Shown here piece by piece: positions 15,966-36,707 of a DNA stretch of 36,707 nt (position 1 is the first letter of the stretch; every line of letters begins with the position of its first letter). The notes below the pieces were generated by a model that was given only the letters and a program-made list of their open reading frames with translations, searched no databases and was not told the origin of the DNA. The DNA is from a virus. Both the position numbers and the translations under genes were made by a program. The stretch covers positions 1 through 36,707 of the IMG/VR virus record IMGVR_UViG_3300018876_001671; one strand, written 5' to 3'.

Positions 15966-16413
15966 ATAACAAAGACGACGGTCTGAGTTAGATAGTGCAA
16001 GGAAGAGGGGTAGACAGGCCCCGAACTTGGCTAGTAGCTGTAGTGGCAGCGCATGAGCATGGAGACATGAAGATGCGACTTCGAACGTAACTGTACGATG
16101 CTAGGCTCCTGGGTATATGACAGCGAGACTGTAAACCTGGGTTGAGGGTATTCTCGAGTCCCTCCTATCCATATTAACATAGTGTTTTGATATACACACC
16201 AGAGTAGATGCACCTACTTTCCTGTGCATAGGACAAGAGCTCGAAAGGCAACAAGTGAGTGTGTATTTCAAAGTAACTGTGTTGTTACTTTAATCCGAAC
16301 TGTAACAAGAAAGGAAACCCATTAGACAAGAACTATAGTGGGATAATTAGAAATACACAAACAGAGATGGGTTGCGCCGTAATACGCACGTTAGGGACTA
16401 CGGTTAGTCCCTA
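15966..16413 (+). ncRNA. Long structured noncoding RNA candidate
   Basis: About 450 nt follow the strong promoter, with no credible ORF on either strand. Many stems are visible. A two-part hairpin at 16050-16077 ends in CATG-GAGA-CATG with a GNRA loop. GAGGG/CCCTC (16144-16148 with 16160-16164) exposes the palindrome CTCGAG. Hairpins at 16203-16218 and 16220-16233 have fully complementary six-base loops (ATGCAC and GTGCAT). AAAGTAAC/GTTACTTT pairs at 16270-16291, and GTGTATTTC pairs with GAAATACAC (16261-16269 with 16350-16358). AACCCAT pairs with ATGGGTT (16316-16322 with 16367-16373). A 9-bp terminal hairpin with loop CGGT spans 16392-16413. I do not recognise it as tRNA, RNase P RNA or another known class. 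The 3' end is taken as the terminal hairpin; position beside IF-3/bS21 hints at a translation link. Confidence 0.7.
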
Positions 16414-16421
16414 GATAAATA
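16414..16421 (+). promoter_or_regulatory. Late promoter variant GATAAATA
   Basis: GATAAATA directly follows the terminal hairpin of the noncoding RNA. A start near 16427 gives a leader with a GTAGA/TCTAC hairpin (16427-16431 with 16443-16447) and AAAGGAG before the ATG at 16479. Confidence 0.5.
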
Positions 16422-16478
16422 AACATGTAGATGCCAATAGGGTCTACTAAATCAATCTTGCTTTAAAAGGAGATTACT

Positions 16479-16676
16479 ATGCAAGCAAATTATATTAATG
16501 GACTTGTGGACCAAATCCACACACAAACAAAAACTTTCCTAAACACAATTGATCCAAGCGAGCAGTACACAAAACCTGTACGAGCTATGGCTGATGCAAA
16601 CACAGCGTTTGCTAAAACTTGGGCCGATGCAACAGAAACAATGACCTCTGCTTACACAGCGGCATTGAAAGTATAA
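16479..16676 (+). CDS. Small helical protein, unknown
   Basis: 65 aa from ATG 16479 with a strong AAAGGAG. The sequence is almost entirely amphipathic helix rich in Thr and Ala (VDQIHTQTKTFLNTID, then MADANTAFAKTWADATETM). It vaguely resembles short phasin-like proteins, but the similarity is too general to assign. It lies just before Hsp20, whose ribosome site AAGGAG overlaps its stop, so the pair is probably co-expressed. Confidence 0.65.
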   Translation: MQANYINGLVDQIHTQTKTFLNTIDPSEQYTKPVRAMADANTAFAKTWADATETMTSAYTAALKV

Positions 16677-16687
16677 GGAGAGTGATG

Positions 16688-17119
16688 ATGAATAGATTGA
16701 CAACTTTAGATATTAACAAACTCACTCCTTATGCTGTAGGCTTTGACAGAGTATTTGACGACATGTTCAAATATGTACAACACAATGCCAATAGCACAGG
16801 GTATCCACCTTACAATATAGTAAGAGATGGAGACAAGTTTCAAATTGAAATCGCACTAGCAGGCATTGCCAAAGAAGATTTGGAAATTACTGTAGCAGAA
16901 GGTGTGCTTACAATTGAACACAATCCAGAAGGCGAAGTAGAGCCAGAAGGTTGGCAATGGATTCACAAAGGCATCAGTCAGCGTAAGTTCAAGCGTAATT
17001 TTACACTGAGTGATGACATTGTTGTAAATGGATCAAGAATGGAAAATGGTATGCTTTATGTTGAACTAGAGCGTATTGTTCCTGAAGAAAAGAAACCACG
17101 TACAATTAAAATTAAGTAA
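16688..17119 (+). CDS. Hsp20/alpha-crystallin small heat-shock protein
   Basis: 143 aa. YAVGFDRVFDDMF at the N terminus matches IbpA-type proteins; the alpha-crystallin domain follows (YNIVRDGDKFQIEIALAGI, DLEITVAEGVLTIEH, then RKFKRNFTLSDDIV and MENGMLYVELERI), with a short KPRTIKIK tail. It is an ATP-independent holdase that keeps unfolding proteins soluble. Of two adjacent ATGs, 16688 is preferred because AAGGAG lies 7 nt away. Hsp20 genes are a hallmark of marine T4-like phages. A stable hairpin follows, then ClpS. Confidence 0.93.
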   Translation: MNRLTTLDINKLTPYAVGFDRVFDDMFKYVQHNANSTGYPPYNIVRDGDKFQIEIALAGIAKEDLEITVAEGVLTIEHNPEGEVEPEGWQWIHKGISQRKFKRNFTLSDDIVVNGSRMENGMLYVELERIVPEEKKPRTIKIK

Positions 17120-17125
17120 AATAAA

Positions 17126-17147
17126 GTGGGGGGAGAAATCCTCCCAC
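17126..17147 (+). terminator. Stable GNRA hairpin after Hsp20
   Basis: GTGGGGGGA pairs with TCCTCCCAC around a GAAA tetraloop (nine pairs including one G-T). There is no T-run, so it may be a weak terminator or an mRNA 3' stabiliser. It separates hsp20 from the ClpS late promoter. Confidence 0.6.
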
Positions 17148-17154
17148 GATTTAC

Positions 17155-17162
17155 GGTAAATA
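17155..17162 (+). promoter_or_regulatory. Late promoter variant GGTAAATA, leaderless geometry
   Basis: GGTAAATA keeps the TAAATA core and ends 5 nt before ATG 17168, the spacing seen at 5346, 11548, 18646, 26312 and 26695. There is no SD between it and the start. Confidence 0.5.
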
Positions 17163-17167
17163 TTGAT

Positions 17168-17467
17168 ATGGATACACAACTCGAAGATAAAACCACAAAC
17201 GAGTTAGACATTGCAAAACCCAAACAGTATCAAGTTATAGTTTACAATGATGATACAACACCAATGGAATTTGTAATAGAGCTACTTAAAAATATATTCA
17301 TGCACACACAACAAAGTGCAGAAGGCATCACAATGGCTATACACAACGAAGGCAAGGGTGTAGCTGGTGTGTATTATTATGAAGTAGCAGAACAAAAAGT
17401 ACATGAAAGCATTTTGGTTAGTAGACAAGCAGGTTATCCACTAACACTTGACATTGAAGAACTATAG
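17168..17467 (+). CDS. clpS: ClpS-type Clp protease adaptor
   Basis: 99 aa. VIVYNDDTTPMEFVIELL, then AIHNEGKGVAGVYYYEVAEQKV and a C-terminal YPLTLDIEE match ClpS. The N-degron pocket is intact (Asn-Asp-Asp and the His in AIHNEGK). ClpS binds the N domain of ClpA, delivers N-end-rule substrates and reduces ClpA action on SsrA-tagged proteins. The upstream GTG at 17126 lies in the hairpin and is rejected; ATG 17168 sits 5 nt after a late-type octamer and lacks an SD. With the phage tmRNA and Hsp20 it suggests control of host proteolysis. Such phage adaptors could redirect ClpAP (inference). Confidence 0.92.
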   Translation: MDTQLEDKTTNELDIAKPKQYQVIVYNDDTTPMEFVIELLKNIFMHTQQSAEGITMAIHNEGKGVAGVYYYEVAEQKVHESILVSRQAGYPLTLDIEEL

Positions 17468-17476
17468 AGGTAAATC

Positions 17477-18634
17477 ATGAGAATTGAAGATGAAGTTAAA
17501 TTGGACTACAGTGATGTGCTGATTCGTCCAAAGCGTAGCACCTTGGGCTCACGCAAAGAAGTACGAATGGAACGCAAGTTTCAATTTGCAAACTATGATC
17601 GTGATATAGCACAGCCTGAGTCTGATGAATATCATTATGAAGGTATTCCTATTATGGCAAGTAACATGGACGGTGTTGGCACATTTGAAATGGCTGATAG
17701 ACTAGCTGAATTTAAAGTGTTCACTTGTTTAGTAAAAACATACAGTGTAAACGAATTAGTTAGCTACTTCGACTGCGAAGAAACATTCCGCAGAGATAAT
17801 GTTGCTATGAGTATTGGCATCAAAGACGAAGACCAAACTAAGTTTAGATCAGTTTATGAACAAGTTGGTGAAAAGCTCAAGTATGTGTGCATCGATGTAG
17901 CAAATGGATACAGTCAACGTTTTATAGAATATGTAGCTGAATTTAGAATGCTGTATCCTAACATTGTAATCATTGCAGGTAATGTTGTTACCGCAGATCA
18001 AACACAGGAGTTAATACTAAATGGAGCTGATATTGTTAAAGTGGGCATTGGTCCCGGGTCTGTTTGCACTACTCGCATACAAACTGGTGTTGGATACCCG
18101 CAGTTATCGGCGGTCATCGAGTGCGCTGATGCAGCACATGGACTTGGGGGTCACATTATTGCTGACGGTGGGTGTACTTGCCCTGGAGATGTCGCTAAAG
18201 CCTTTGCTGGCGGAGCAGATTTTGTTATGCTTGGCGGCATGCTTGCTGGGCACGATGAAGGCGGTGGTGAAGTAATTACAAAATATTACGAAACAAATGA
18301 ACGTAACTATGAAATGAGCCAAGGCACACTAGGCAGATTTGAGAAAGTTATAGAAACTAAAAAGTTTGTACAGTTCTACGGTATGAGCAGTAAGACTGCT
18401 AACGACAAACACTTTGAAGGTTTAAAAGATTATCGTAGCAGTGAAGGACGCACAGTGCTAGTACCATATCGTGGTCCAGTTGTAGTAACACTACAAGATG
18501 TTCTGGGAGGTGTGCGCAGTACACTTACATACGTTGGTGCAAACAAACTCAAGCAACTCAACAAGTGTACAACTTTTGTTAGAGTACACAATCAATTCAA
18601 TCGAACATACGAAAGTACAACGACTGGAAATTAA
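17477..18634 (+). CDS. guaC: GMP reductase
   Basis: 385 aa. A TIM-barrel enzyme of the IMPDH/GMPR family that converts GMP to IMP with NADPH. The catalytic loop [11 protein letters not shown] carries the active Cys; the phosphate-binding [15 protein letters not shown] and [17 protein letters not shown] motifs match GMP reductase, and there is no CBS insert as in IMP dehydrogenase. ATG 17477 has GAGGTAAATC upstream and lies 9 nt after clpS. It is slightly longer than E. coli GuaC, with a C-terminal extension. With Prs, MazG and NrdAB it forms a purine and nucleotide supply set. IMP dehydrogenase is the alternative but less likely. Confidence 0.9.
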
Positions 18635-18640
18635 TAAATA
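18633..18640 (+). promoter_or_regulatory. Late promoter AATAAATA, leaderless geometry
   Basis: AATAAATA overlaps the guaC stop and is followed by GTTGT and ATG 18646, the same 5-nt linker sequence as before the PAAR gene and the gene at 26695. No SD is present. Confidence 0.6.
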
Positions 18641-18645
18641 GTTGT

Positions 18646-19986
18646 ATGAGAGCATTTGAACTATTAGAATCTAGAGGTGTAACTGCAAGGGCGCCTGGAG
18701 AAACATACGTTAGCGATACTGATCCTAGCGACATTCTTACCATACAGGATATTACAGTACTACCTGCTGAAGGTGACTCATATGAAGATATGGATCAAAT
18801 GATGCAGGCTGTAGACAGTGCTATTCCAGACACAAATACACGCATAGATGATAACAAACCCAATAGTGGAACCAAAGCTGCTATACTTGCTACAGTAAGT
18901 GATAAAGATGGCAAAGGTCAAACACATGTAAGATACATCAGAGCTATTCCACCTCAAGGTGTACACACTATGTGGAAAACACTTAATGGTTATAAGTTTA
19001 GTAAAGGTGCTGAACAAGAAAGTATCCCAATCAAACCAAGTGACTTGGTACCCGATGAAAACTATCGTAGTGCAACTGAACTAGCACAGCAAATTAAAAC
19101 AGGTTCAAAAGACTTGGGAGAGCTGGGCGAAGTTATGGAAATGGCAGTTGATCAAGCACTAGCTGGAACAAATCAACCTATTCCAGGCGGCGACAAATAT
19201 TATAATGTACTACAAAAATACGGCGGCGAGTATCTAGGGCCGATTGCACTTATGAGTAAACCCAATAGTGTTACTGGCGATACTGCTAAGATGATGCAAC
19301 AGTTTGGTCTTAATAACTTTGCTGGTTCAAGAGTAATGTTTCCACAAGACACTGCAATGGAACTAATTGACAGTGTTATTATGACACAAGATGGACGCAG
19401 TATTCAAATCTCTAGTAAGATCAGTACAAGCGGCGGAGCAGCTAGTAGTTTAAGTGGTGTGTACAAACAAATGACTCCAGAGATCGAACAACGTTTTCCA
19501 GAAGGTGCAAAGATTATTGAATTACTAGCAACTGAAAGTAGTGTAAATGGTCCACTTAAAGTAGCACGTATGTTTAACATCATTGACGATAGTGATATTC
19601 AAGCAATGGCAAACTTGGACAAGCGTACACAAAACATTGGCGATTTACAAAGCGAACGCTTACAACAAATGACACAGCAACAAGGTGTTGCTAATGGTAC
19701 ACAAGAAAGACCAGACTATAGAGTATTTTGGCACACACTAACAGCCGTTATGAATGCAGTTATTCCTGTTGTAAATGCAAATGAAAACTTTAAAAATGCT
19801 ATGTTGGAAGTACTCAACAACAATGAATATGTGCAATTGGTAACCAAAGCCGTTAAACAAGGAGACGCAGTAAGTATGCAATACTACACTAAGTTTCCAG
19901 CAGTTTTTAAAGGTGCGCCTCAATTGGTTAACAAGACTTATTTTGCAACTGGGCAAAAAGGTCGTATTGGCTTCAAACTAAAATAA
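18646..19986 (+). CDS. Large leaderless late protein with possible capsid-targeting leader
   Basis: 446 aa, no recognised domain. The N terminus MRAFELLESRG fits the T4 capsid-targeting pattern: a short leader ending L-x-E before a small residue, where the prohead protease cuts. The middle has IQISSKISTSGGAASSLSG, a striking Gly/Ser segment after a strand, and the C-terminal half is helical (MNAVIPVVNANENFKNAML). No membrane segment. It is expressed from a late promoter with no leader. A packaged, injected internal protein is the working hypothesis; a plain virion protein is the alternative. Confidence 0.65.
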   Translation: MRAFELLESRGVTARAPGETYVSDTDPSDILTIQDITVLPAEGDSYEDMDQMMQAVDSAIPDTNTRIDDNKPNSGTKAAILATVSDKDGKGQTHVRYIRAIPPQGVHTMWKTLNGYKFSKGAEQESIPIKPSDLVPDENYRSATELAQQIKTGSKDLGELGEVMEMAVDQALAGTNQPIPGGDKYYNVLQKYGGEYLGPIALMSKPNSVTGDTAKMMQQFGLNNFAGSRVMFPQDTAMELIDSVIMTQDGRSIQISSKISTSGGAASSLSGVYKQMTPEIEQRFPEGAKIIELLATESSVNGPLKVARMFNIIDDSDIQAMANLDKRTQNIGDLQSERLQQMTQQQGVANGTQERPDYRVFWHTLTAVMNAVIPVVNANENFKNAMLEVLNNNEYVQLVTKAVKQGDAVSMQYYTKFPAVFKGAPQLVNKTYFATGQKGRIGFKLK

Positions 19987-20263
19987 CTGCGCTATTTCAA
20001 CGCAGCTAAGAATATTACAAAATCCCCATATCTTCTAACTTATGCTATAAATTTTTATAGGTATGCAGTAATTGCATAACGGCTTTTTGAAATCTGCTAT
20101 AGCTTTTAGGTCAGAAATGCTGTACTATAATTATAAATAAATGCGTACAAACAAAGCGACCTCAGCTTTTCAAAAATGAGTGACACTTGGCAAAGACCAG
20201 TGACGCCGGAAATAGACCGGGGTATTGCTTCCCTCAAGCATCCAAACAATTAGGAGAAAAATA
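19987..20263 (+). promoter_or_regulatory. Regulatory gap upstream of the DUF1127 cassette
   Basis: The gap holds several dyads: CTGCG/CGCAG (19987-20005), CTATAA/TTATAG (20045-20060), and a perfect TATGCA/TGCATA (20062-20067 with 20073-20078). A perfect -10, TATAAT (20126-20131), lies beside a perfect late octamer TATAAATA (20132-20139), so both host-type and late RNA polymerase forms could start near 20138-20145. The -35 is poor, suggesting an activator. A 25-codon ORF lies at 20176-20253, and CCGG repeats (20208-20221) could form a small leader hairpin. Confidence 0.55.
20176..20253 (+). CDS. Possible 25-residue leader peptide
   Basis: ATG 20176 opens 25 codons (MSDTWQRPVTPEIDRGIASL at the start) ending at a TAG that overlaps the AGGAG used by the next gene, as expected for a translationally coupled leader. 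Its own ribosome site is weak. It may be a real small protein, a leader peptide, or chance. Confidence 0.35.
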   Translation: MSDTWQRPVTPEIDRGIASLKHPNN

Positions 20264-20434
20264 ATGGCAAAGATGCTATACAGTAATCTTGTGAGTATGT
20301 TTGGGCGCAGATCAACGTTCGAACGAGAAATGCTTACATACGCAAAAACAGAATATGGCAATGATTGGCAGTACGCCTTTGAATACATGAAAACACACAA
20401 CGGTCGTGGTCCGAGAGCAGGAGTATACAACTAA
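20264..20434 (+). CDS. Small protein, first of the DUF1127 cassette
   Basis: 56 aa from ATG 20264 with TAGGAG upstream. The sequence (FGRRSTFEREMLTYAKTEYG, then WQYAFEYMKTHNGRGP) is a basic, helical, soluble small protein. It resembles small alphaproteobacterial proteins in length and composition but no domain is assigned. Its TAA overlaps the ATG of the DUF1127 gene (TAATG), so the two are coupled. Confidence 0.65.
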   Translation: MAKMLYSNLVSMFGRRSTFEREMLTYAKTEYGNDWQYAFEYMKTHNGRGPRAGVYN

Positions 20435-20700
20435 TGACACAAGCAATTTTAACAGCATCAGGCGTGATACAAGACGCAATCACAGGATTTATGGATCTTA
20501 TCAAAACATTAAGAAAAAAATCACAGATACGTGCTAGACAACGAGCAACATACAAAGAATTATCTAAATTAAGTGATGCAGATTTATCTGATATTGGCTT
20601 ATGTCGCGGTGATATTTACAGCATCTCACGTGGTAACTTACAAGATGCAAGTGAAGAAATCAAAGCAAGAACAAACAACAATTTAAAAGGATGGGTATAA
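20434..20700 (+). CDS. DUF1127-domain small basic protein
   Basis: 88 aa. Residues about 33-60 (ARQRATYKELSKLSDADL then SDIGLCRGDI) match the DUF1127 motif, in which a conserved L-S-D-x-x-L-x-D-I-G-x-x-R-x-x-I follows a basic helix. DUF1127 proteins are abundant in Alphaproteobacteria; members are implicated in RNA turnover and phosphate or carbon metabolism, and one in Rhodobacter binds RNA. A phage copy could mimic or titrate the host protein (inference). Start and stop both sit in TAATG overlaps. Confidence 0.8.
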   Translation: MTQAILTASGVIQDAITGFMDLIKTLRKKSQIRARQRATYKELSKLSDADLSDIGLCRGDIYSISRGNLQDASEEIKARTNNNLKGWV

Positions 20701-20897
20701 TGACTGCGGCAACAATTAGAAATAATACATGGGGACTAACATGTAAAGTATGTAAAGTATTGCAAACAGCACTAGTAACGTTTGCAATGGGTGTATGGGC
20801 ATTTGGCGAATCAGCAGGTAGAGCAAGAGCCGCTGAAGCACTTTGGAGAGAAGGTTACCACGAAGAAGCAAAACGTTTAATGTTGGAGAAACGATAA
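20700..20897 (+). CDS. Small membrane-type protein of the DUF1127 cassette
   Basis: 65 aa from ATG 20700, in a TAATG overlap; an ATG three codons upstream is in the same frame but lies within the previous gene. A hydrophobic stretch (LQTALVTFAMGVWAFGESAG) is followed by a helix, RARAAEALWREGYHEEAKRLM. The latter pattern occurs in small alphaproteobacterial proteins, often near DUF1127 genes, as far as I recall. Two Cys (CKVCK) precede the hydrophobic part. Function unknown. Confidence 0.7.
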   Translation: MTAATIRNNTWGLTCKVCKVLQTALVTFAMGVWAFGESAGRARAAEALWREGYHEEAKRLMLEKR

Positions 20898-21031
20898 TGT
20901 TTAAAAAATTTATCAAAGCAATGGAATACAGAAGTTATTGTATGGCAATTAGAGAACTAAGAAGCAGAGGCTACTATAAAAAAGCTGATGAGATTAGTGA
21001 GTTCAAACATAAGATGTATCCAACATATTAA
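20897..21031 (+). CDS. Small basic protein, last of the DUF1127 cassette
   Basis: 44 aa from ATG 20897 in a TAATG overlap. MFKKFIKAMEYRSYCMAIRE at the start, then LRSRGYYKKADEISEF, form one or two basic helices. The A-x-R-E-L-R-x-x-G-Y pattern echoes the helix of the preceding protein. No domain is assigned. It ends the cassette of four genes linked by single-base stop/start overlaps. Confidence 0.65.
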   Translation: MFKKFIKAMEYRSYCMAIRELRSRGYYKKADEISEFKHKMYPTY

Positions 21032-21061
21032 AAGTGCTACGTTTTAGCGCATGTAAAAAAG

Positions 21062-21103
21062 TATATAGTGGGCTTGAATTTTGATTCTTGTCCACTATAT
21101 AGT
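21062..21103 (+). promoter_or_regulatory. Promoter embedded in an inverted repeat
   Basis: TATATAGTGG (21062-21071) is a perfect inverted copy of CCACTATATA (21092-21101). TTGAAT (21074-21079), 18 nt and TATAGT (21098-21103) form a plausible sigma70-like promoter whose -10 lies in the right arm. It would drive the genes from 21125. A small GCTA/TAGC stem lies just upstream. Confidence 0.5.
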
Positions 21104-21124
21104 ATAGCATGAAGGGAAATTTCA

Positions 21125-21283
21125 ATGAGTGAAAAAACTAACTATTGCACTACAAAAGATCTTGGCAAAGCATTTGCTATAATTGCTTTCTTTATAGTAG
21201 GCATACCAGTATTAATGGTAGACAATGCCAAATACTGTAAACAAAGTATCTTACCTTGTTATCCTTGGGTGACGCCAGAATGA
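21125..21283 (+). CDS. Small single-pass membrane protein
   Basis: 52 aa from ATG 21125, with AAGGGA upstream. After a 14-residue polar N terminus, one hydrophobic helix (AFAIIAFFIVGIPVLMV) is followed by a short tail with two Cys (YCKQSILPCYPW). The stop overlaps the next ATG (ATGA). Inner-membrane protein, function unknown; a lysis-related role is possible from its pairing with a membrane/lipoprotein-like gene, but this is speculative. Confidence 0.6.
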   Translation: MSEKTNYCTTKDLGKAFAIIAFFIVGIPVLMVDNAKYCKQSILPCYPWVTPE

Positions 21284-21495
21284 CAGACGAAGAAGTAAGA
21301 GCAGCCGCACAAGTAGAAGCAGAGCGCACATTTGAAGCGTTCATGGTATGGACAAAAAGAGTAACATTATGGAGCATATTCTTTTTGTTGGTTGTCGTTG
21401 TTGGATGTAACAGCGGCGTAGAGGATGGACAATATCCTGGATATAATGGGGAACAATATAGTCCCTCTAATCTCAATGTAAAGGACAATAAATGA
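21280..21495 (+). CDS. Small membrane or lipoprotein-like protein
   Basis: 71 aa from ATG 21280 in an ATGA overlap. A charged, helical N terminus of about 28 residues is followed by a hydrophobic stretch ending LLVVVVGC, which resembles a lipobox but lies late for a signal peptide, then a polar Gly/Asn/Tyr-rich tail (VEDGQYPGYNGEQY). It could be a single-pass protein with an exported tail or an unusual lipoprotein. The stop overlaps the next gene as ATGA. Confidence 0.6.
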   Translation: MTDEEVRAAAQVEAERTFEAFMVWTKRVTLWSIFFLLVVVVGCNSGVEDGQYPGYNGEQYSPSNLNVKDNK

Positions 21496-21707
21496 AACCA
21501 AACAAAAAATTTGAACTCGAGGTTAGAGATATAGAAATTATCGAACAAGCACTAAGAGCAAAAGCTGGCAGACGTGGTCTGGCAATTGCTTCTGGAGAAA
21601 CATCAAAAAAACTTAGAGATGAAATGCACGAAATACAAGAGTTACTAGGAAGAATACACAATCAAAAAAATTGGTATTCTCCCAAAGGATTTACACCAGG
21701 CGGCTAG
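21492..21707 (+). CDS. Small coiled-coil protein, unknown
   Basis: 71 aa from ATG 21492 in an ATGA overlap. The body is helical (LEVRDIEIIEQALRAKAG, then KLRDEMHEIQELLGRIHNQ) with a conserved-looking LLGRIHNQKNWY ending followed by a Gly/Pro tail. No domain assigned. Its TAG shares the tetramer CTAG at 21704-21707 with the stop of the convergent lipase gene, so no terminator separates the two strands. Confidence 0.65.
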   Translation: MKPNKKFELEVRDIEIIEQALRAKAGRRGLAIASGETSKKLRDEMHEIQELLGRIHNQKNWYSPKGFTPGG

Positions 21708-22453
21708 TCAGTGTGCTTACTGATGCGTTCAACATATCCTGGCATACTGTGATCGTAGATACTATCAAACCATTGGCGTTTACGAAACGCCGCACGATAT
21801 CCTCTGAATCTATCTTTAAATCTTTGCCAAGCAGTAGCATTTCTAATATTGCCATATGTATTGATATAGTGTAATTCACCTACATGTCTATAGAACAAAA
21901 AGCTAGGCGGAACACGCGGCACAATATCGTTGTTATTCACAAATCTATAACATGTAAATTTGCTGTTGAACTCTTTAACCCAACTTCTAGTACCAACACG
22001 TGGCGATCCATAGTTATAGCATATTGTTCCCTCGGGCAATCTACTACAAGCAATAGTACTCATAGCACCACCTAAACTGTGACCACATGTGTACACTTGT
22101 GTAAACTTGCGCTTGGCTAACCATGCTTCAATTTGATCCCACAGTTCGTCTACTTCGCTTTTAAATCCTTTGTGTACTCTGCCTTCACCTAGTTCGTTGC
22201 GCACATGCAGTGCATTAAGATCCGCTTTGATATCGTTAAATTGTGTGGGTTCTGTACCTCTAAACGCCAACACTACATAATCATTTTTACTCATACCGTA
22301 TGCTTGAGCACCATCTATATTAAAGAATCTTATGTTCTTATATCCCATAGCAGAGACAGCTTTTTTAAATGTTTTTTCTTCTTGGTATGCTAAGTTACTT
22401 AGATTTGCACATTCTAGTGCGTTCTCATAACTAAACTTATTTTTTAACGCCAT
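21704..22453 (-). CDS. Class 3 (alpha/beta hydrolase) lipase
   Basis: 249 aa. VVLAFRGTE carries the oxyanion-side motif, YTCGHSLGGAMS the nucleophile Ser in GxSxG, NNNDIVPRVPP the catalytic Asp, and YDHSMPGYV a plausible catalytic His, the full Lipase_3 triad. There is no signal peptide, so it would act inside the cell, possibly on host membrane lipids or storage esters. The start at 22453 is chosen because GAGGAG lies 7 nt upstream; a GTG 11 codons earlier lacks one. It overlaps the upstream MscS-like gene by 17 nt, forming a late minus-strand operon. Confidence 0.88.
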   Translation of the reverse strand: MALKNKFSYENALECANLSNLAYQEEKTFKKAVSAMGYKNIRFFNIDGAQAYGMSKNDYVVLAFRGTEPTQFNDIKADLNALHVRNELGEGRVHKGFKSEVDELWDQIEAWLAKRKFTQVYTCGHSLGGAMSTIACSRLPEGTICYNYGSPRVGTRSWVKEFNSKFTCYRFVNNNDIVPRVPPSFLFYRHVGELHYINTYGNIRNATAWQRFKDRFRGYRAAFRKRQWFDSIYDHSMPGYVERISKHTD

Positions 22454-22889
22454 TCTTGATCTCCTCGATAGCTTCTTTGTTGGCACTTATTTTTGAATCT
22501 TGTGCAAGGTCAATCATAGCCTGCAACTTTTGTGCTTTTTCCATATCTGAATCTAAGTGGAGATCTTTGTTAATAACTTTTTCAAGTTTTAATGTTGGGA
22601 TGCGTTCATTGGGTACATAACGCCAAGTATATCCTTGTTCGCCGTACACTCCAAACACTGTTTCAGTAAGTCCAATTTTAACAATGACGCTGTCACTGCC
22701 ATCTAATATGACTTTGTCGCCTTCATTGAAAGCTCTATTCATTTTGAACATCATACCTTTGGCAATTTTAGTTGCAAAGTCTTTGAACCATAATGTTATT
22801 ACTAGTAACAATAATGCACTTATAAAAGGCATTAATAAATTGGTGATTTCCAAGCCTACACCTGAGGCACTCATTATTTCTGCGTCCAT
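22437..22889 (-). CDS. MscS-like membrane protein (minimal channel core)
   Basis: 150 aa from ATG at 22889, preceded by GGAGAG. After a short exterior segment, one strong membrane helix (LLMPFISALLLLVITLWF) leads into FATKIAKGMMFKMNRAFNEGDKV, resembling the TM3b-to-beta-domain junction of MscS. VILDGSDSVIVKIGLTETVF and YVPNERIPTL match the MscS beta domain. The sensor helices TM1-TM2 are missing, so it is either a minimal channel or a protein that joins host MscS oligomers. The C terminus is helical and charged. It is co-expressed with the lipase from a late promoter at 22905-22912. Confidence 0.7.
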   Translation of the reverse strand: MDAEIMSASGVGLEITNLLMPFISALLLLVITLWFKDFATKIAKGMMFKMNRAFNEGDKVILDGSDSVIVKIGLTETVFGVYGEQGYTWRYVPNERIPTLKLEKVINKDLHLDSDMEKAQKLQAMIDLAQDSKISANKEAIEEIKNGVKK

Positions 22890-22904
22890 GTTTCTCTCCA
22901 CTTG

Positions 22905-22912
22905 TATTTATT
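22905..22912 (-). promoter_or_regulatory. Late promoter AATAAATA for the minus-strand operon
   Basis: Read on the minus strand, AATAAATA lies 16 nt upstream of ATG 22889, leaving a very short leader with GGAGAG. It overlaps the -35 of the divergent plus-strand promoter by two bases. Confidence 0.6.
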
Positions 22913-22939
22913 GACAATCGAGTTAAATACGTGTACAAT
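22911..22939 (+). promoter_or_regulatory. Strong sigma70-like promoter TTGACA-N17-TACAAT
   Basis: TTGACA at 22911-22916, 17 nt, TACAAT at 22934-22939 (5 of 6) with TG directly before it. It drives the genes from 22957 and is divergent from the overlapping late promoter. Confidence 0.8.
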
Positions 22940-22956
22940 ATTGCAAAAGGAACACA

Positions 22957-23169
22957 ATGTCACACAGCGTAGAACAATTTTATCACAAAGCAAAAGTGCT
23001 ACATGAGAAAGCTATAGCACTACACAGAGAAAGATATCGTGTACAAGGAACATACGATGCACATGCTTGTCAAGTAATGCTTGACGATCTAAGAGCTTTA
23101 GCATTTGATATCCAACACGGAATGATAGATTTTGATATTGATTTTGGCAAAGGATCAAATCCTCAATGA
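22957..23169 (+). CDS. Small unknown protein
   Basis: 70 aa from ATG 22957 with AAAAGGAA upstream. The N-terminal two-thirds is helical and His-rich (VEQFYHKAKVLHEKAIALHR, then YDAHACQVMLDDLRAL), the end acidic (IDFDIDFGKG). No domain assigned. The stop overlaps the AlgH/YqgE-like gene as ATGA, so both share the strong promoter at 22911. Confidence 0.65.
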   Translation: MSHSVEQFYHKAKVLHEKAIALHRERYRVQGTYDAHACQVMLDDLRALAFDIQHGMIDFDIDFGKGSNPQ

Positions 23170-23711
23170 ACATGAGCCAGCAATTCCTTGTTAGTTTACC
23201 TATGCTGGGAGACAGTAACTTTTTTAAAAGTGTTGTCTATGTAGAGAATCATGACGGAGATGGAGCAAAGGGATGGATAGTAAACAAAGAACTAGATGCT
23301 AGAGTTGCTGTAAGATTGCGTAAAAGTATTCAGCTTGGAATAAACGCTCCTATATACTACGGTGGACCTGTTGAAGTTAATCAATGTTTTGTATTACACA
23401 GTAGCGATATAATGCTTGCACAGAGTTTAAAAATCAATGACAATTTGTGTGTGACCAGAGATAAATCAATTATTACAATGCTCAATGAAAATAAATTTCC
23501 ACAAAACTACAGGATTATAATTGGATGTGCTAGTTGGGGTCCTGGTCAACTTGAAAGTGAATTACTGGGCAGTAGAACCGGCGGTAAAAGTATGTGGGTC
23601 AGTGCTGACTATCAAAAAGATTTTATGTGGAGTGCAACAGCAGAAGAACAGTGGTCACATGGTATTGAAAACAGCGCCAAGCAAAAAGCAACAAACTATT
23701 TGAATTTTTAA
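23166..23711 (+). CDS. AlgH/YqgE-family (UPF0301, DUF179) protein
   Basis: 181 aa. FLVSLPMLGDSNFFKSVVYV, then GAKGWIVNKEL, YYGGPVEVNQCFVLHS and IIIGCASWGPGQLESEL match the DUF179 family, where the hallmark segments are MP-x-x-x-D-x-x-F-x-x-S-V-V-Y, the GG-P-V loop and G-x-x-x-W-x-x-G-Q-L-E-x-E. The biochemical role of YqgE/AlgH is not settled; members have been linked to regulation and redox-type functions. Phage copies are unusual to my knowledge. ATG 23166 overlaps the upstream stop; a second ATG at 23172 is possible. It is expressed from a strong host-type promoter. Confidence 0.88.
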   Translation: MNMSQQFLVSLPMLGDSNFFKSVVYVENHDGDGAKGWIVNKELDARVAVRLRKSIQLGINAPIYYGGPVEVNQCFVLHSSDIMLAQSLKINDNLCVTRDKSIITMLNENKFPQNYRIIIGCASWGPGQLESELLGSRTGGKSMWVSADYQKDFMWSATAEEQWSHGIENSAKQKATNYLNF

Positions 23712-23938
23712 TGTATACAGTAGAAATGGATCTTGACGAAATTACTATCACATTGTTAGATGACAGTGGCAACTATGCTGATGTAATCATCAACAGTTTT
23801 GATGATATCGTTTACATAAGACAGTTTGAGGATAATTCAACTACACCTCAAGCTATTGCACTAAGTCCTCAGATGTGGGAAGAATTGATTTCAGCTATGC
23901 ACAGTCCTGAGGGTGCATTTCGTACTGTTCGAAAATAG
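23711..23938 (+). CDS. Small acidic protein, unknown
   Basis: 75 aa from the ATG in a TAATG overlap. A beta-rich N terminus (TVEMDLDEITITLLDDSG, ADVIINSFDDIVYIRQF) is followed by one helix (SPQMWEELISAMHSP). Acidic and soluble; no domain recognised. Third gene of the unit driven from 22911. Confidence 0.65.
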   Translation: MYTVEMDLDEITITLLDDSGNYADVIINSFDDIVYIRQFEDNSTTPQAIALSPQMWEELISAMHSPEGAFRTVRK

Positions 23939-23968
23939 ACCTGTTAGCGTACAACATTGTAACAGTTA

Positions 23969-23976
23969 TGTAAATA
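23969..23976 (+). promoter_or_regulatory. Possible late promoter TGTAAATA
   Basis: The same variant octamer as before the endolysin gene. A start near 23982 gives a leader holding AAGGAGGT before ATG 24003. Confidence 0.35.
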
Positions 23977-24002
23977 CACTTAATCAATTCAAGGAGGTCG
24001 TT

Positions 24003-30629: not shown

Positions 30630-31082
30630 ATGGCAAAATATCAATCAACAAAAACATACGGGCATAACATTGGACTAAGTGCAGTGTTCCGTCAACCACA
30701 CGCAGATCATTCACATTGTAGATTCTTGCATGGATATAGTTTAGCATTTAAGTTTACATTTGGTTGCGATAGTTTAGATCATCGCAATTGGGCTGTAGAC
30801 TTTGGTGGACTAAAGCCATTGAAGAAATGGTTAGAAGACACATTTGATCACAAGACAGTAATTGACAGAGAAGATCCATTCTTGTATAAGTTCACAGAAC
30901 TTGAGAACATGGGCCTAGCAGAAATTACAGTATTAGATGGTGTAGGTGCAGAAAAGTTTGCAGAACATGCTTGTAAATTTGCAGACAAATTAATACGTGA
31001 AGCAACAGACAATCGTTGTTATTGTGTGAGTTGCGAATGTAGTGAACACGGAGCGAATAGTGCAATCTATCACAACGAATGA
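30630..31082 (+). CDS. queD: 6-carboxy-tetrahydropterin synthase-like protein
   Basis: 150 aa of the QueD/PTPS family, which makes a precursor of 7-deazaguanines (queuosine, or modified phage DNA). FRQPHADHSHCRFLHGYSLA holds the catalytic Cys and zinc His region; VDFGGLKPLKKWLEDTFDHKTVI and HGANSAIY are the other conserved blocks. The second His of the HGH zinc motif is Tyr here (HGY); I recall HGY in a proteobacterial branch, so it may be a subgroup trait. No other queuosine genes are in the window, so the pathway must be completed elsewhere or by the host. AAGGAG precedes ATG 30630. Confidence 0.85.
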   Translation: MAKYQSTKTYGHNIGLSAVFRQPHADHSHCRFLHGYSLAFKFTFGCDSLDHRNWAVDFGGLKPLKKWLEDTFDHKTVIDREDPFLYKFTELENMGLAEITVLDGVGAEKFAEHACKFADKLIREATDNRCYCVSCECSEHGANSAIYHNE

Positions 31083-32998: not shown

Positions 32999-33946
32999 AT
33001 GAAAATTATTACTGGAAGCAGTAACCAGCCTTTTGCACAAAAGGTTGCGGAACACTGTTTTACCGATCTCGTTCCAGCAGAACTTAATCGGTTTAGTGAC
33101 GGAGAAATATGTGTAGAGGTTAAAGAAAACATCCGAGGCAAGGATGTTTTTTTAGTGAATAGCACCTGTACTCCTGTAAACGAAAGTTTAATGGAACTAT
33201 TAATTATGATAGACACTGCTAAACGTAGCAGTGCGCAGAGAATTACAGCAGTAATTCCGTATTTTGGATATGCAAGACAAGATCGTAAGAGTGCAAGTCG
33301 TACTCCTATTACTGCAAAACTAGTAGCTGATCTATTGCAACGAGCGGGCGCAGATAGAATTTTAACAATGGATCTACATGCAGGACAAATACAAGGTTTT
33401 TTTGATATTCCTGTGGATGATTTAACAAGCCGTGTAGTATTTGCCAAAGACATCAAACGTTCGATTGGCATTAGAGAAGAACCTGAAGTAGAACAAGCAG
33501 GCACAGTGTTTGTGTCACCGGATGCAGGCGGCGCTGTTAGAGCTCGTAAGTTTGCTGATATGTTTCATGGAGATATTGCTATTGTGGACAAACGCAGACC
33601 TGAAGCTGGTGTAGCGGAAGTTATGGCACTAATTGGCGATGTAAAAAACAAGCATGCAATCTTAGTAGATGATATTGTGGACAGCGGCGGTACATTGTGC
33701 AAAGCGGCTGAAGCTATCTTAGATGCAGGTGCGCTAAGTGTTCGTGCATACATTACACATGGTGTACTCAGCAACGGTGCAAGTAAAAAGATTGATGCTA
33801 GTAAACTAGAAGAACTGGTAATCAGTGACAGTATTCCTTACAAAGGCACAAGTAAAAAAGTGAGACAAGTGAGTCTAGCACCTTTGTTTGGCGAAGCAAT
33901 GCGTAGGATTACCAACGAAGAATCAGTGAGTAGTTTATTTCAATGA
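32999..33946 (+). CDS. prs: Ribose-phosphate pyrophosphokinase (PRPP synthetase)
   Basis: 315 aa, full-length class I enzyme. It makes PRPP from ribose 5-phosphate and ATP for nucleotide synthesis. Key segments: ELNRFSDGEICVEV, YARQDRKSASRTPITAKLVA (ATP-binding flexible region), MDLHAGQIQGFFDIPVD, SPDAGGAVRARKFA and the PRPP-binding VDDIVDSGGTL. Compared with E. coli Prs length is normal. GGAGGACTAA precedes ATG 32999. The stop overlaps the aldolase start (ATGA), so the two are one operon. It supports purine and pyrimidine supply together with GuaC and NrdAB. Confidence 0.95.
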   Translation: MKIITGSSNQPFAQKVAEHCFTDLVPAELNRFSDGEICVEVKENIRGKDVFLVNSTCTPVNESLMELLIMIDTAKRSSAQRITAVIPYFGYARQDRKSASRTPITAKLVADLLQRAGADRILTMDLHAGQIQGFFDIPVDDLTSRVVFAKDIKRSIGIREEPEVEQAGTVFVSPDAGGAVRARKFADMFHGDIAIVDKRRPEAGVAEVMALIGDVKNKHAILVDDIVDSGGTLCKAAEAILDAGALSVRAYITHGVLSNGASKKIDASKLEELVISDSIPYKGTSKKVRQVSLAPLFGEAMRRITNEESVSSLFQ

Positions 33947-35705: not shown

Positions 35706-36707
35706 ATGGTACGATCATTCGTAGCCGCACTCGTGGCGGTTTTTGCAGTAACAACAGTTGCTGAAGCACGAGAAATTAGAATTGTAGGTAGTTCTACAGT
35801 ATATCCTTTCACAACAATCGTAGGAGAAACATTTGCCGCAGAGGGCAACACTGCTCCAGTTATTGAATCAACTGGCACAGGCGGTGGCATGAAACTATTC
35901 TGTGCAGGTACAGGTGTTGATCACCCAGACTTTACAAATGCTTCACGTGCAATCAAATCATCAGAAGTAGAGAAGTGTAGTGCAAATGGAGTAACACCCT
36001 TAGAAATGCTAGTTGGTTATGACGGTATTGTGTTTGCAACCAGCAACGAAGGCGAAGCATTAGAAATCACACCACGTGAGTTGTTCCAAGCATTAGCAAA
36101 AGATGTCCCACAGGAAAATGGCGACCTTGTTCCAAACCCATTCACAACTTGGAACCAAATCAATCCAAAATTCCCTAACACAAAAATTGAAGTATTAGGA
36201 CCACCACCAAGTTCAGGAACACGTGATGCGTGGAGCGAACTGGTAATGGAAGCAGGCTGTAAGACTTATGGTTGGGTAAAAGACCTTAAGAAAGCAGACA
36301 AGAAAGCATACAAAGGTATCTGCCACGGTATCCGTGAAGATGGTGCTTATGTAGAAGCAGGTGAAAACGATAACCTTATCATTCAAAAACTTGCTAACAA
36401 TCCAAATGCTTATGGTATCTTTGGTTATTCATTCCTAGACCAAAACACAGATGTTATCCAAGGTTCACCGATTGGTGGCGTGGTTCCAACATTTGAATCA
36501 ATTGCAGATGGTAGCTATCCAGCAAGCCGCGGACTATATGTGTATGCTAAAAAAGAGCATATGGGTGTAATTGACGGCATGACTGAGTTCATGGAACTAT
36601 ATCTCAGCGATGACGTAGCAGGTCAAGACGGTTCACTAGGTGATGCAGGACTTATTCCTCTACCACAAAATGAACTTGACACAGTACGTGCAAACGTGTT
36701 AAACTAA
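35706..36707 (+). CDS. pstS: Phosphate-binding protein PstS
   Basis: 333 aa, complete; its TAA is the last codon of the window. A signal peptide (SFVAALVAVFAVTTVAEA, cut near Arg-Glu) directs it to the periplasm. IVGSSTVYPFTTIVGETF, TGGGMKLFC, DFTNASRAIKSSE, PPPSSGTRDAW and GIFGYSF are the PstS phosphate-site segments. It captures phosphate for the host PstCAB transporter and thereby supplies phage DNA synthesis. Phage pstS genes are common in phosphate-poor oceans. No clear Pho box was seen; a late promoter precedes it. GGAG lies 8 nt before ATG 35706. Confidence 0.95.
   Translation: MVRSFVAALVAVFAVTTVAEAREIRIVGSSTVYPFTTIVGETFAAEGNTAPVIESTGTGGGMKLFCAGTGVDHPDFTNASRAIKSSEVEKCSANGVTPLEMLVGYDGIVFATSNEGEALEITPRELFQALAKDVPQENGDLVPNPFTTWNQINPKFPNTKIEVLGPPPSSGTRDAWSELVMEAGCKTYGWVKDLKKADKKAYKGICHGIREDGAYVEAGENDNLIIQKLANNPNAYGIFGYSFLDQNTDVIQGSPIGGVVPTFESIADGSYPASRGLYVYAKKEHMGVIDGMTEFMELYLSDDVAGQDGSLGDAGLIPLPQNELDTVRANVLN

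What the first reader, a model, noticed from the sequence alone, without database searches (positions are those of the whole stretch)
20264..21031. Four-gene cassette joined by TAATG overlaps and centred on DUF1127
The ATG of each of the last three genes overlaps the previous stop by one base (20434, 20700, 20897), giving strict coupling of four small, mostly basic proteins. DUF1127 proteins are typical of Alphaproteobacteria and linked to RNA turnover and nutrient responses. This looks like a host-acquired regulatory cassette.
Basis: partly seen in the sequence, partly recalled or inferred. Interest (0 to 1): 0.65.

Follow-up and report, generated by a model that had tools for sequence, protein, structure and literature searches.

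The report
Phage DUF1127 operon with structured leader
A group of uncultured, probably marine bacterial viruses carries a tightly coupled set of tiny basic proteins built around DUF1127, in most cases behind the same previously undescribed folded RNA leader, and part of the set copies a two-gene operon found in streamlined alphaproteobacteria, so it looks like a borrowed and rebuilt tool for reprogramming the infected cell.

Summary
In detail: four small ORFs, three exact TAATG junctions, one DUF1127 protein. The junctions are under selection: DUF1127-ORF3 is kept in 68 of 71 independent viral loci (the other three are contig ends), with the one-base overlap in 65 of 68.

The feature extends upstream. 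A T4-type late promoter (20132-20139) precedes a leader of tandem hairpins (20153-20240) ending in a near-invariant element. It covaries strongly, is absent from Rfam at the loci tested, and in every recovered viral contig with enough sequence it precedes cassette genes.

"Host-acquired" is partly right. ORF1 plus a DUF3563-like gene form a TAATG-coupled operon in an order of small-genome Alphaproteobacteria (46/150 genomes; 19/20 inspected loci). Many phages put DUF3563 in the DUF1127 slot. ORF3 and the leader were found only in viruses (ORF4 not searched in cells). The cultured phage Melnitz has the same three genes, last two swapped.

Most likely function (inferred): a late operon of small helical proteins that rewires host RNA or signalling, with the leader as a control site. 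The mechanism is untested.

The parts
20132..20139 (+). T4-type late promoter box TATAAATA
   Evidence: Exact TATAAATA within 260 nt upstream of the leader element in 48 of 88 distinct leaders against 42 of 1760 random 260-nt stretches. All six copies in the window are on the + strand, though six is only marginally above chance.
20153..20169 (+). leader hairpin A, loop GACCUCA
   Evidence: Predicted fold; recurs in many leaders as GAGC-GACCUCA-GCUC and similar
20184..20202 (+). leader hairpin B, loop CAAAGA
   Evidence: nAWAGA hairpin unit: 61 in 46 distinct leaders against 0.3 in shuffles
20203..20223 (+). leader hairpin C, CCGG-AAATAGA-CCGG with A-U/C-G base
   Evidence: The 5-bp relatives of this hairpin are 100% paired, with 17 compensatory cells against 4.8 in shuffles, 0/500
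20219..20243 (+). near-invariant element GGGGTATTGCTTYCCTCAAGCATCC, including hairpin D (20226-20240, loop CCCUC)
   Evidence: At least 119 viral stretches; single copy in the window; CM R1 hit 59.1 bits
20252..20256 (+). Shine-Dalgarno AGGAG of ORF1
   Evidence: Sequence, 7 nt before the ATG
20264..20434 (+). ORF1, 56 aa, YAKTEYxxDWxYAxxYM family
   Evidence: A3 alignment; cellular homologues in 46/150 genomes of one order; no Pfam or PHROG match
20434..20700 (+). ORF2, 88 aa DUF1127 protein with phage-specific N-terminus MTQAILTA and C-tail NxNLxGWV
   Evidence: PF06568 E 2.6e-10; alignment A2; tail conserved at protein level with varied codons
20700..20897 (+). ORF3, 65 aa, GRARAAxELxRxGYxxEAxxLM family
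   Evidence: Alignment A1; at least 396 viral relatives; cellular genome hits lie in phage contigs
20897..21031 (+). ORF4, 44 aa, ORF3-like helical module
   Evidence: hhalign against ORF3: probability 73, E 3e-5 over 28 columns; kept in 12 of 71 loci; slot holds a second DUF1127 in L073

Best explanation
Shown: a phage gene unit with a T4-type late promoter motif, a roughly 100-nt leader of tandem hairpins (many with nAAAGA hexaloops, then an invariant UUGCUU-YCCUC-AAGCA hairpin), and a chain of small basic, predicted helical proteins whose one-base stop/start overlaps are conserved. Inferred: late in infection the overlaps make the proteins in fixed proportion. DUF1127, or DUF3563 in the same slot, acts as an adaptor that binds host RNA and/or a regulator protein as cellular DUF1127 proteins do, with ORF3 as its constant partner. 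ORF1 mimics or displaces the host ORF1-DUF3563 operon. The structured leader is the control site of the operon, most simply an mRNA-stabilising and protein-binding array through which one of the products limits its own synthesis. The net effect would be to shift host RNA stability and energy or nutrient physiology towards virus production.
For: Conserved pair and TAATG; purifying selection; leader covariation and hairpin-unit excess; element exclusively ahead of cassette genes in recovered contigs; late-promoter enrichment; cellular ORF1-DUF3563 operon with the same junction; DUF1127 and DUF3563 interchangeable in the slot and sharing the C-tail NPNL[KR]GWI in L175, L219 and L234; cultured phage Melnitz with TATAAATA, ORF1-like, ORF3, DUF1127; literature: CcaF1 binds RNA and is involved in processing its own operon transcript together with RNase E (PMC10253847).
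Against: No tool here shows RNA binding, autoregulation or expression. The R1-type leader is absent from the HSP20-type loci tested and from Melnitz L155, so it is not needed for the DUF1127-ORF3 pair. In the window the leader is not unusually stable as a whole (z -0.45 to -0.77); the support is comparative. DUF1127 can act by protein contact alone (PMC12501420). T4 gp23, gp20 and gp45 profiles missed the ORF1-type contigs except G014, so the T4-type promoter reading rests on the motif.
Confidence: 0.4

Rival explanations
1. The DUF1127 protein works by protein contact, binding a host sensor kinase such as PhoR and resetting phosphate uptake; the leader is only a translation or stability element.
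For: Three Agrobacterium DUF1127 proteins and E. coli YjiS bind PhoR, and DUF1127 proteins from several species restore pst control (PMC12501420); Salmonella YjiS associates with the inner membrane and with SsrA/B (PMC11707872). The window ends in a gene with a weak phosphate-transporter PHROG match at 35706.
Against: Loss of DUF1127 raises phosphate uptake, so adding one should lower it, opposite to what a phage is usually thought to want; no co-variation of the cassette with pho genes was tested.
Confidence: 0.22
2. The proteins are assembly or modulating factors for membrane bioenergetic complexes and belong to an energy island of the phage.
For: Neighbouring genes in 270 fetched viral loci (some loci repeat a contig): pseudoazurin-like in 61, COX4-like in 50, DoxX-like in 41, ATP synthase subunit c-like in 24; many ORF3 proteins have a hydrophobic N-terminal helix; small single-helix membrane-type proteins follow in many chains.
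Against: Neighbours vary while the core pair is constant; ORF1, ORF2 and ORF4 are basic and have no long hydrophobic stretch.
Confidence: 0.2
3. Accessory small genes of no specific regulatory role, kept together by operon structure, with a leader that merely protects a late mRNA from RNases.
For: Phages often carry conserved small ORFs of unknown role (general knowledge); the leader is a hairpin array near the presumed 5' end.
Against: Near-invariant 25-nt element and invariant loop sequence, slot replacement by DUF3563, shared C-tail and pN/pS of 0.18-0.27.
Confidence: 0.15
4. The conserved leader is a coding leader peptide rather than a structured RNA.
For: 42 of 77 distinct leaders have some ATG-open frame through the core element.
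Against: The open frame is 0, 1 or 2 in different loci and absent in 35; stems change on both sides while pairing is kept.
Confidence: 0.03

Closest known systems
CIN1 locus of alphaproteobacteria: DUF1127 gene ccaF1 with CcsR/cuckoo sRNAs (R. sphaeroides)
   Same: Small DUF1127 protein in one transcript with tandem hairpin RNAs; here some hairpin loops carry CCUC, reminiscent of the anti-Shine-Dalgarno loops recalled for cuckoo RNAs (own knowledge)
   Different: RNA lies upstream, not downstream; no CCUCCUCCC loop in the window leader; promoter looks T4-late, not RpoH; further coupled genes ORF1, ORF3, ORF4
Cellular ORF1-DUF3563 operon of small-genome Alphaproteobacteria (L285, L286, L297-L314)
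   Same: ORF1 homologue as first gene and the same TAATG one-base junction
   Different: Two genes only, second is DUF3563 rather than DUF1127, no ORF3, different leader sequence
Methylophilales phage Melnitz genes 44-46 (MZ577096, L155)
   Same: TATAAATA, ORF1-like, ORF3 family, DUF1127, with a one-base overlap between the last two
   Different: Order ORF3 then DUF1127; no R1-type leader element; annotated hypothetical apart from DUF1127
Agrobacterium SDPs and E. coli/Salmonella YjiS (DUF1127)
   Same: DUF1127 domain, small basic helical protein
   Different: Phage protein has its own N-terminus MTQAILTA and C-tail NxNLxGWV and a near-constant ORF3 neighbour

Membership tests
DUF1127 (PF06568) | Pfam profile match over the curated cut-off | tested here: met
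   40.3 bits against 23.3, residues 34-62
DUF1127 (PF06568) | RNA or PhoR binding seen for studied members | not testable with these tools
   Needs biochemistry
CIN1 / CcsR (cuckoo) locus | DUF1127 gene co-located with a hairpin RNA | tested here: met
   Leader directly upstream in the same predicted transcript
CIN1 / CcsR (cuckoo) locus | CCUCCUCCC-type anti-Shine-Dalgarno loops (recalled) | tested here: not met
   Loops are GACCUCA and CCCUC/UCCUC
CIN1 / CcsR (cuckoo) locus | Match to an Rfam family | tested here: not met
   No Rfam match in the window leader or at the element in six loci
Host-acquired cassette | Same gene set in cellular genomes | tested here: not met
   ORF3 and leader absent from sampled cells; only ORF1 (with DUF3563) and the DUF1127 domain are cellular
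T4-type late operon | TATAAATA at the expected place | tested here: met
   48/88 against 42/1760
T4-type late operon | T4 gp23, gp20 or gp45 clamp in the same phages | tested here: inconclusive
   HSP20-type contigs and G014 have gp23 and gp20; the other ORF1-type contigs show none, but are fragments

The most novel reading that the evidence does not exclude
The leader array and the DUF1127/ORF3 proteins form a phage-encoded ribonucleoprotein regulatory circuit, a viral counterpart of the CIN1 locus, in which the hairpin RNA titrates or is bound by the phage small proteins (or a host RNA-binding protein) and so reprograms host mRNA turnover late in infection.
Probability: 0.2. Interest if true: 0.82.

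Novelty: new variant of a known kind. Interest (0 to 1): 0.62.

Why it matters
DUF1127 is one of the largest families of small bacterial proteins and its role, RNA or protein binding, is disputed. A widespread viral version with a fixed partner, an interchangeable DUF3563 slot and a covarying leader RNA gives defined, testable partners. It also joins an unexplained two-gene operon of streamlined alphaproteobacteria to its virus copy, and a cultured phage-host pair (Melnitz and OM43 H5P1) carries a version that can be tested. The leader appears to be an undescribed RNA family.

Tried and rejected
Leader as coding peptide: frames differ across loci. Leader loop pairing with the ORF1 Shine-Dalgarno: possible for UUUCCUC loops but not for the CCCUC loops of the window group, so not supported by comparison (inspection). 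ORF3 as a divergent DUF1127: profile comparison gave nothing. DUF3563 as a divergent DUF1127: nothing. Cellular ORF3 hits: L073 and L074 are phage contigs in MAGs, and the L074 bin holds nine gp23 matches. The one cellular R1 hit (L279) looks like a chance match. DUF1127 and ORF3 models are all-helical but of low confidence (pLDDT 62 and 66, pTM 0.37 and 0.35), so no fold search was made. An 8-kb DNA search (16001-24000) against cultured phages found only GMP reductase. Relatives cannot be drawn for a virus record.

Full report
OBSERVATION. ORF2 is a DUF1127 protein; all four are basic and evolve under purifying selection. The window is a 36.7-kb virus record with genes for ribonucleotide reductase, an endolysin and T4 gp5-like and other baseplate or tail proteins.

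CONSERVATION. ORF2 found 71 viral loci. Iterated profiles place ORF3 next to DUF1127 in 68 of them; in the other three the contig ends. ORF1 is present in 22 and ORF4 in 12 (raw counts there include the window and L072, the window itself). The TAATG overlap is kept at ORF1/ORF2 in 21 of 22 and at ORF2/ORF3 in 65 of 68 (one of the 65 is TGATG). The C-tail NxNLxGWV of DUF1127 is held at the protein level: L uses five codons, V four, G three. It recurs as NPNLKGWI or NPNLRGWI at the end of DUF3563-like proteins that take the DUF1127 slot in other phages. Two broad types exist: ORF1-DUF1127-ORF3(-ORF4) behind a leader RNA, and HSP20-DUF1127-ORF3 in contigs of which the three tested carry T4 gp23 and gp20. 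Some loci are near-identical, so the counts are of loci, not of independent evolutionary events.

LEADER RNA. Upstream of ORF1 lies GGGGTATTGCTTYCCTCAAGCATCC. Wherever enough downstream sequence was held, cassette genes follow: ORF1, DUF1127 or DUF3563, ORF3, or (L188, L201, L203) an ORF3-like protein. The hairpin before the element is formed in all 14 sequences of A6, with 17 compensatory cells against 4.8 in shuffles; a second, further-upstream hairpin in A8 gives 22 against 6.7. Sliding the structure destroys pairing. The final hairpin never varies in these sets, so covariation says nothing about it, but L034 has a variant with stem AUGCU/AGCAU. Leaders hold 61 nAWAGA 4-bp hairpins in 46 distinct sequences against 0.3 by chance. 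Rfam gives no match. A covariance model finds the element once in the window, 59.1 bits.

PROMOTER. TATAAATA lies at 20132-20139. In 48 of 88 distinct leaders it stands within 260 nt upstream, mostly 115-165 nt before the element, against 2.4% of random stretches. This implies, by analogy with T4, a late transcript starting near 20145.

ORIGIN. Of 289 sampled alphaproteobacterial genomes none gives a credible match to ORF3 or the leader except a Rhodobacteraceae bin with nine gp23 matches, i.e. phage contigs. DUF1127 itself is in 56 of 190, mostly over the domain only. ORF1 matched two genomes of the class sample, and 46 of 150 in their order of 0.8-1.6 Mb genomes. In 19 of 20 inspected loci the next gene is DUF3563-like and overlaps by the same TAATG. 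So the first gene and the coupling have a cellular counterpart; DUF1127, ORF3 and the leader were not found with it (ORF4 was not searched in cells). The direction of transfer is not shown, and the order has no name in these tools.

CULTURED RELATIVE. Phage Melnitz has TATAAATA, then an ORF1-like gene, an ORF3 gene and DUF1127, the last two overlapping by one base. The Melnitz paper's text does not mention DUF1127. The ORF1-like call there is by eye (RTEYAN motif), not by a profile.

MECHANISM. [quoted passage not shown] The phage unit combines a DUF1127 protein with a multi-hairpin RNA in one predicted transcript, which makes an RNA-linked control loop the simplest reading, but nothing here shows binding. 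The neighbourhood of energy genes in related phages (pseudoazurin, ATP synthase c, DoxX, COX4-like) supports a rival in which the proteins act on membranes or respiration.

VERDICT. The cassette is real, conserved and larger than reported. It is a viral module with a partial cellular counterpart and an apparently new leader RNA. Literature search found no description of phage DUF1127 cassettes or of DUF3563 function in the held library; that library omits most subscription papers.

Noticed in passing
L016, L022, L080-L083, L141 and others: Phage gene for an ATP synthase subunit c-like protein (PF00137, 44.4 bits) near the cassette, in 24 of 270 fetched viral loci.
   Followed up: partly
L008, L010, L013, L166, L172, L173, L211, L234 and others: Pseudoazurin/plastocyanin-like blue copper protein gene (PF00127) close to the cassette in 61 of 270 viral loci.
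   Followed up: partly
window 21280-21495: ORF6 has a sub-threshold match to COX4_pro_2, subunit IV of bacterial aa3 cytochrome oxidase (a relative in L078).
   Followed up: partly
window 16619-17119; L014-L058 upstream of DUF1127: Phage HSP20 gene; in T4-like contigs it directly precedes DUF1127, whose Shine-Dalgarno can pair with the HSP20 3' end (UCCUCGU/ACGAGGA), suggesting coupling.
   Followed up: partly
L211 1152-1216: Sub-threshold ROSE_3 RNA thermometer match (34.3 bits, gathering 43).
   Followed up: no
L073 1084-1326, L098, L117, L147: Second DUF1127 gene directly after ORF3 in the slot otherwise held by ORF4.
   Followed up: partly
window 17477-18634, 21704-22486, 30630-31082, 32999-33946: GMP reductase/IMPDH-like, class 3 lipase on the minus strand, QueD-like and ribose-phosphate pyrophosphokinase genes in the phage.
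   Followed up: no
L285 1340-1425, L286 1350-1440: The cellular ORF1-DUF3563 operon has its own conserved hairpin-rich leader (GUCUC-AUAAA-GAGAC and a hairpin just before the Shine-Dalgarno), unrelated in sequence to the phage leader.
   Followed up: no
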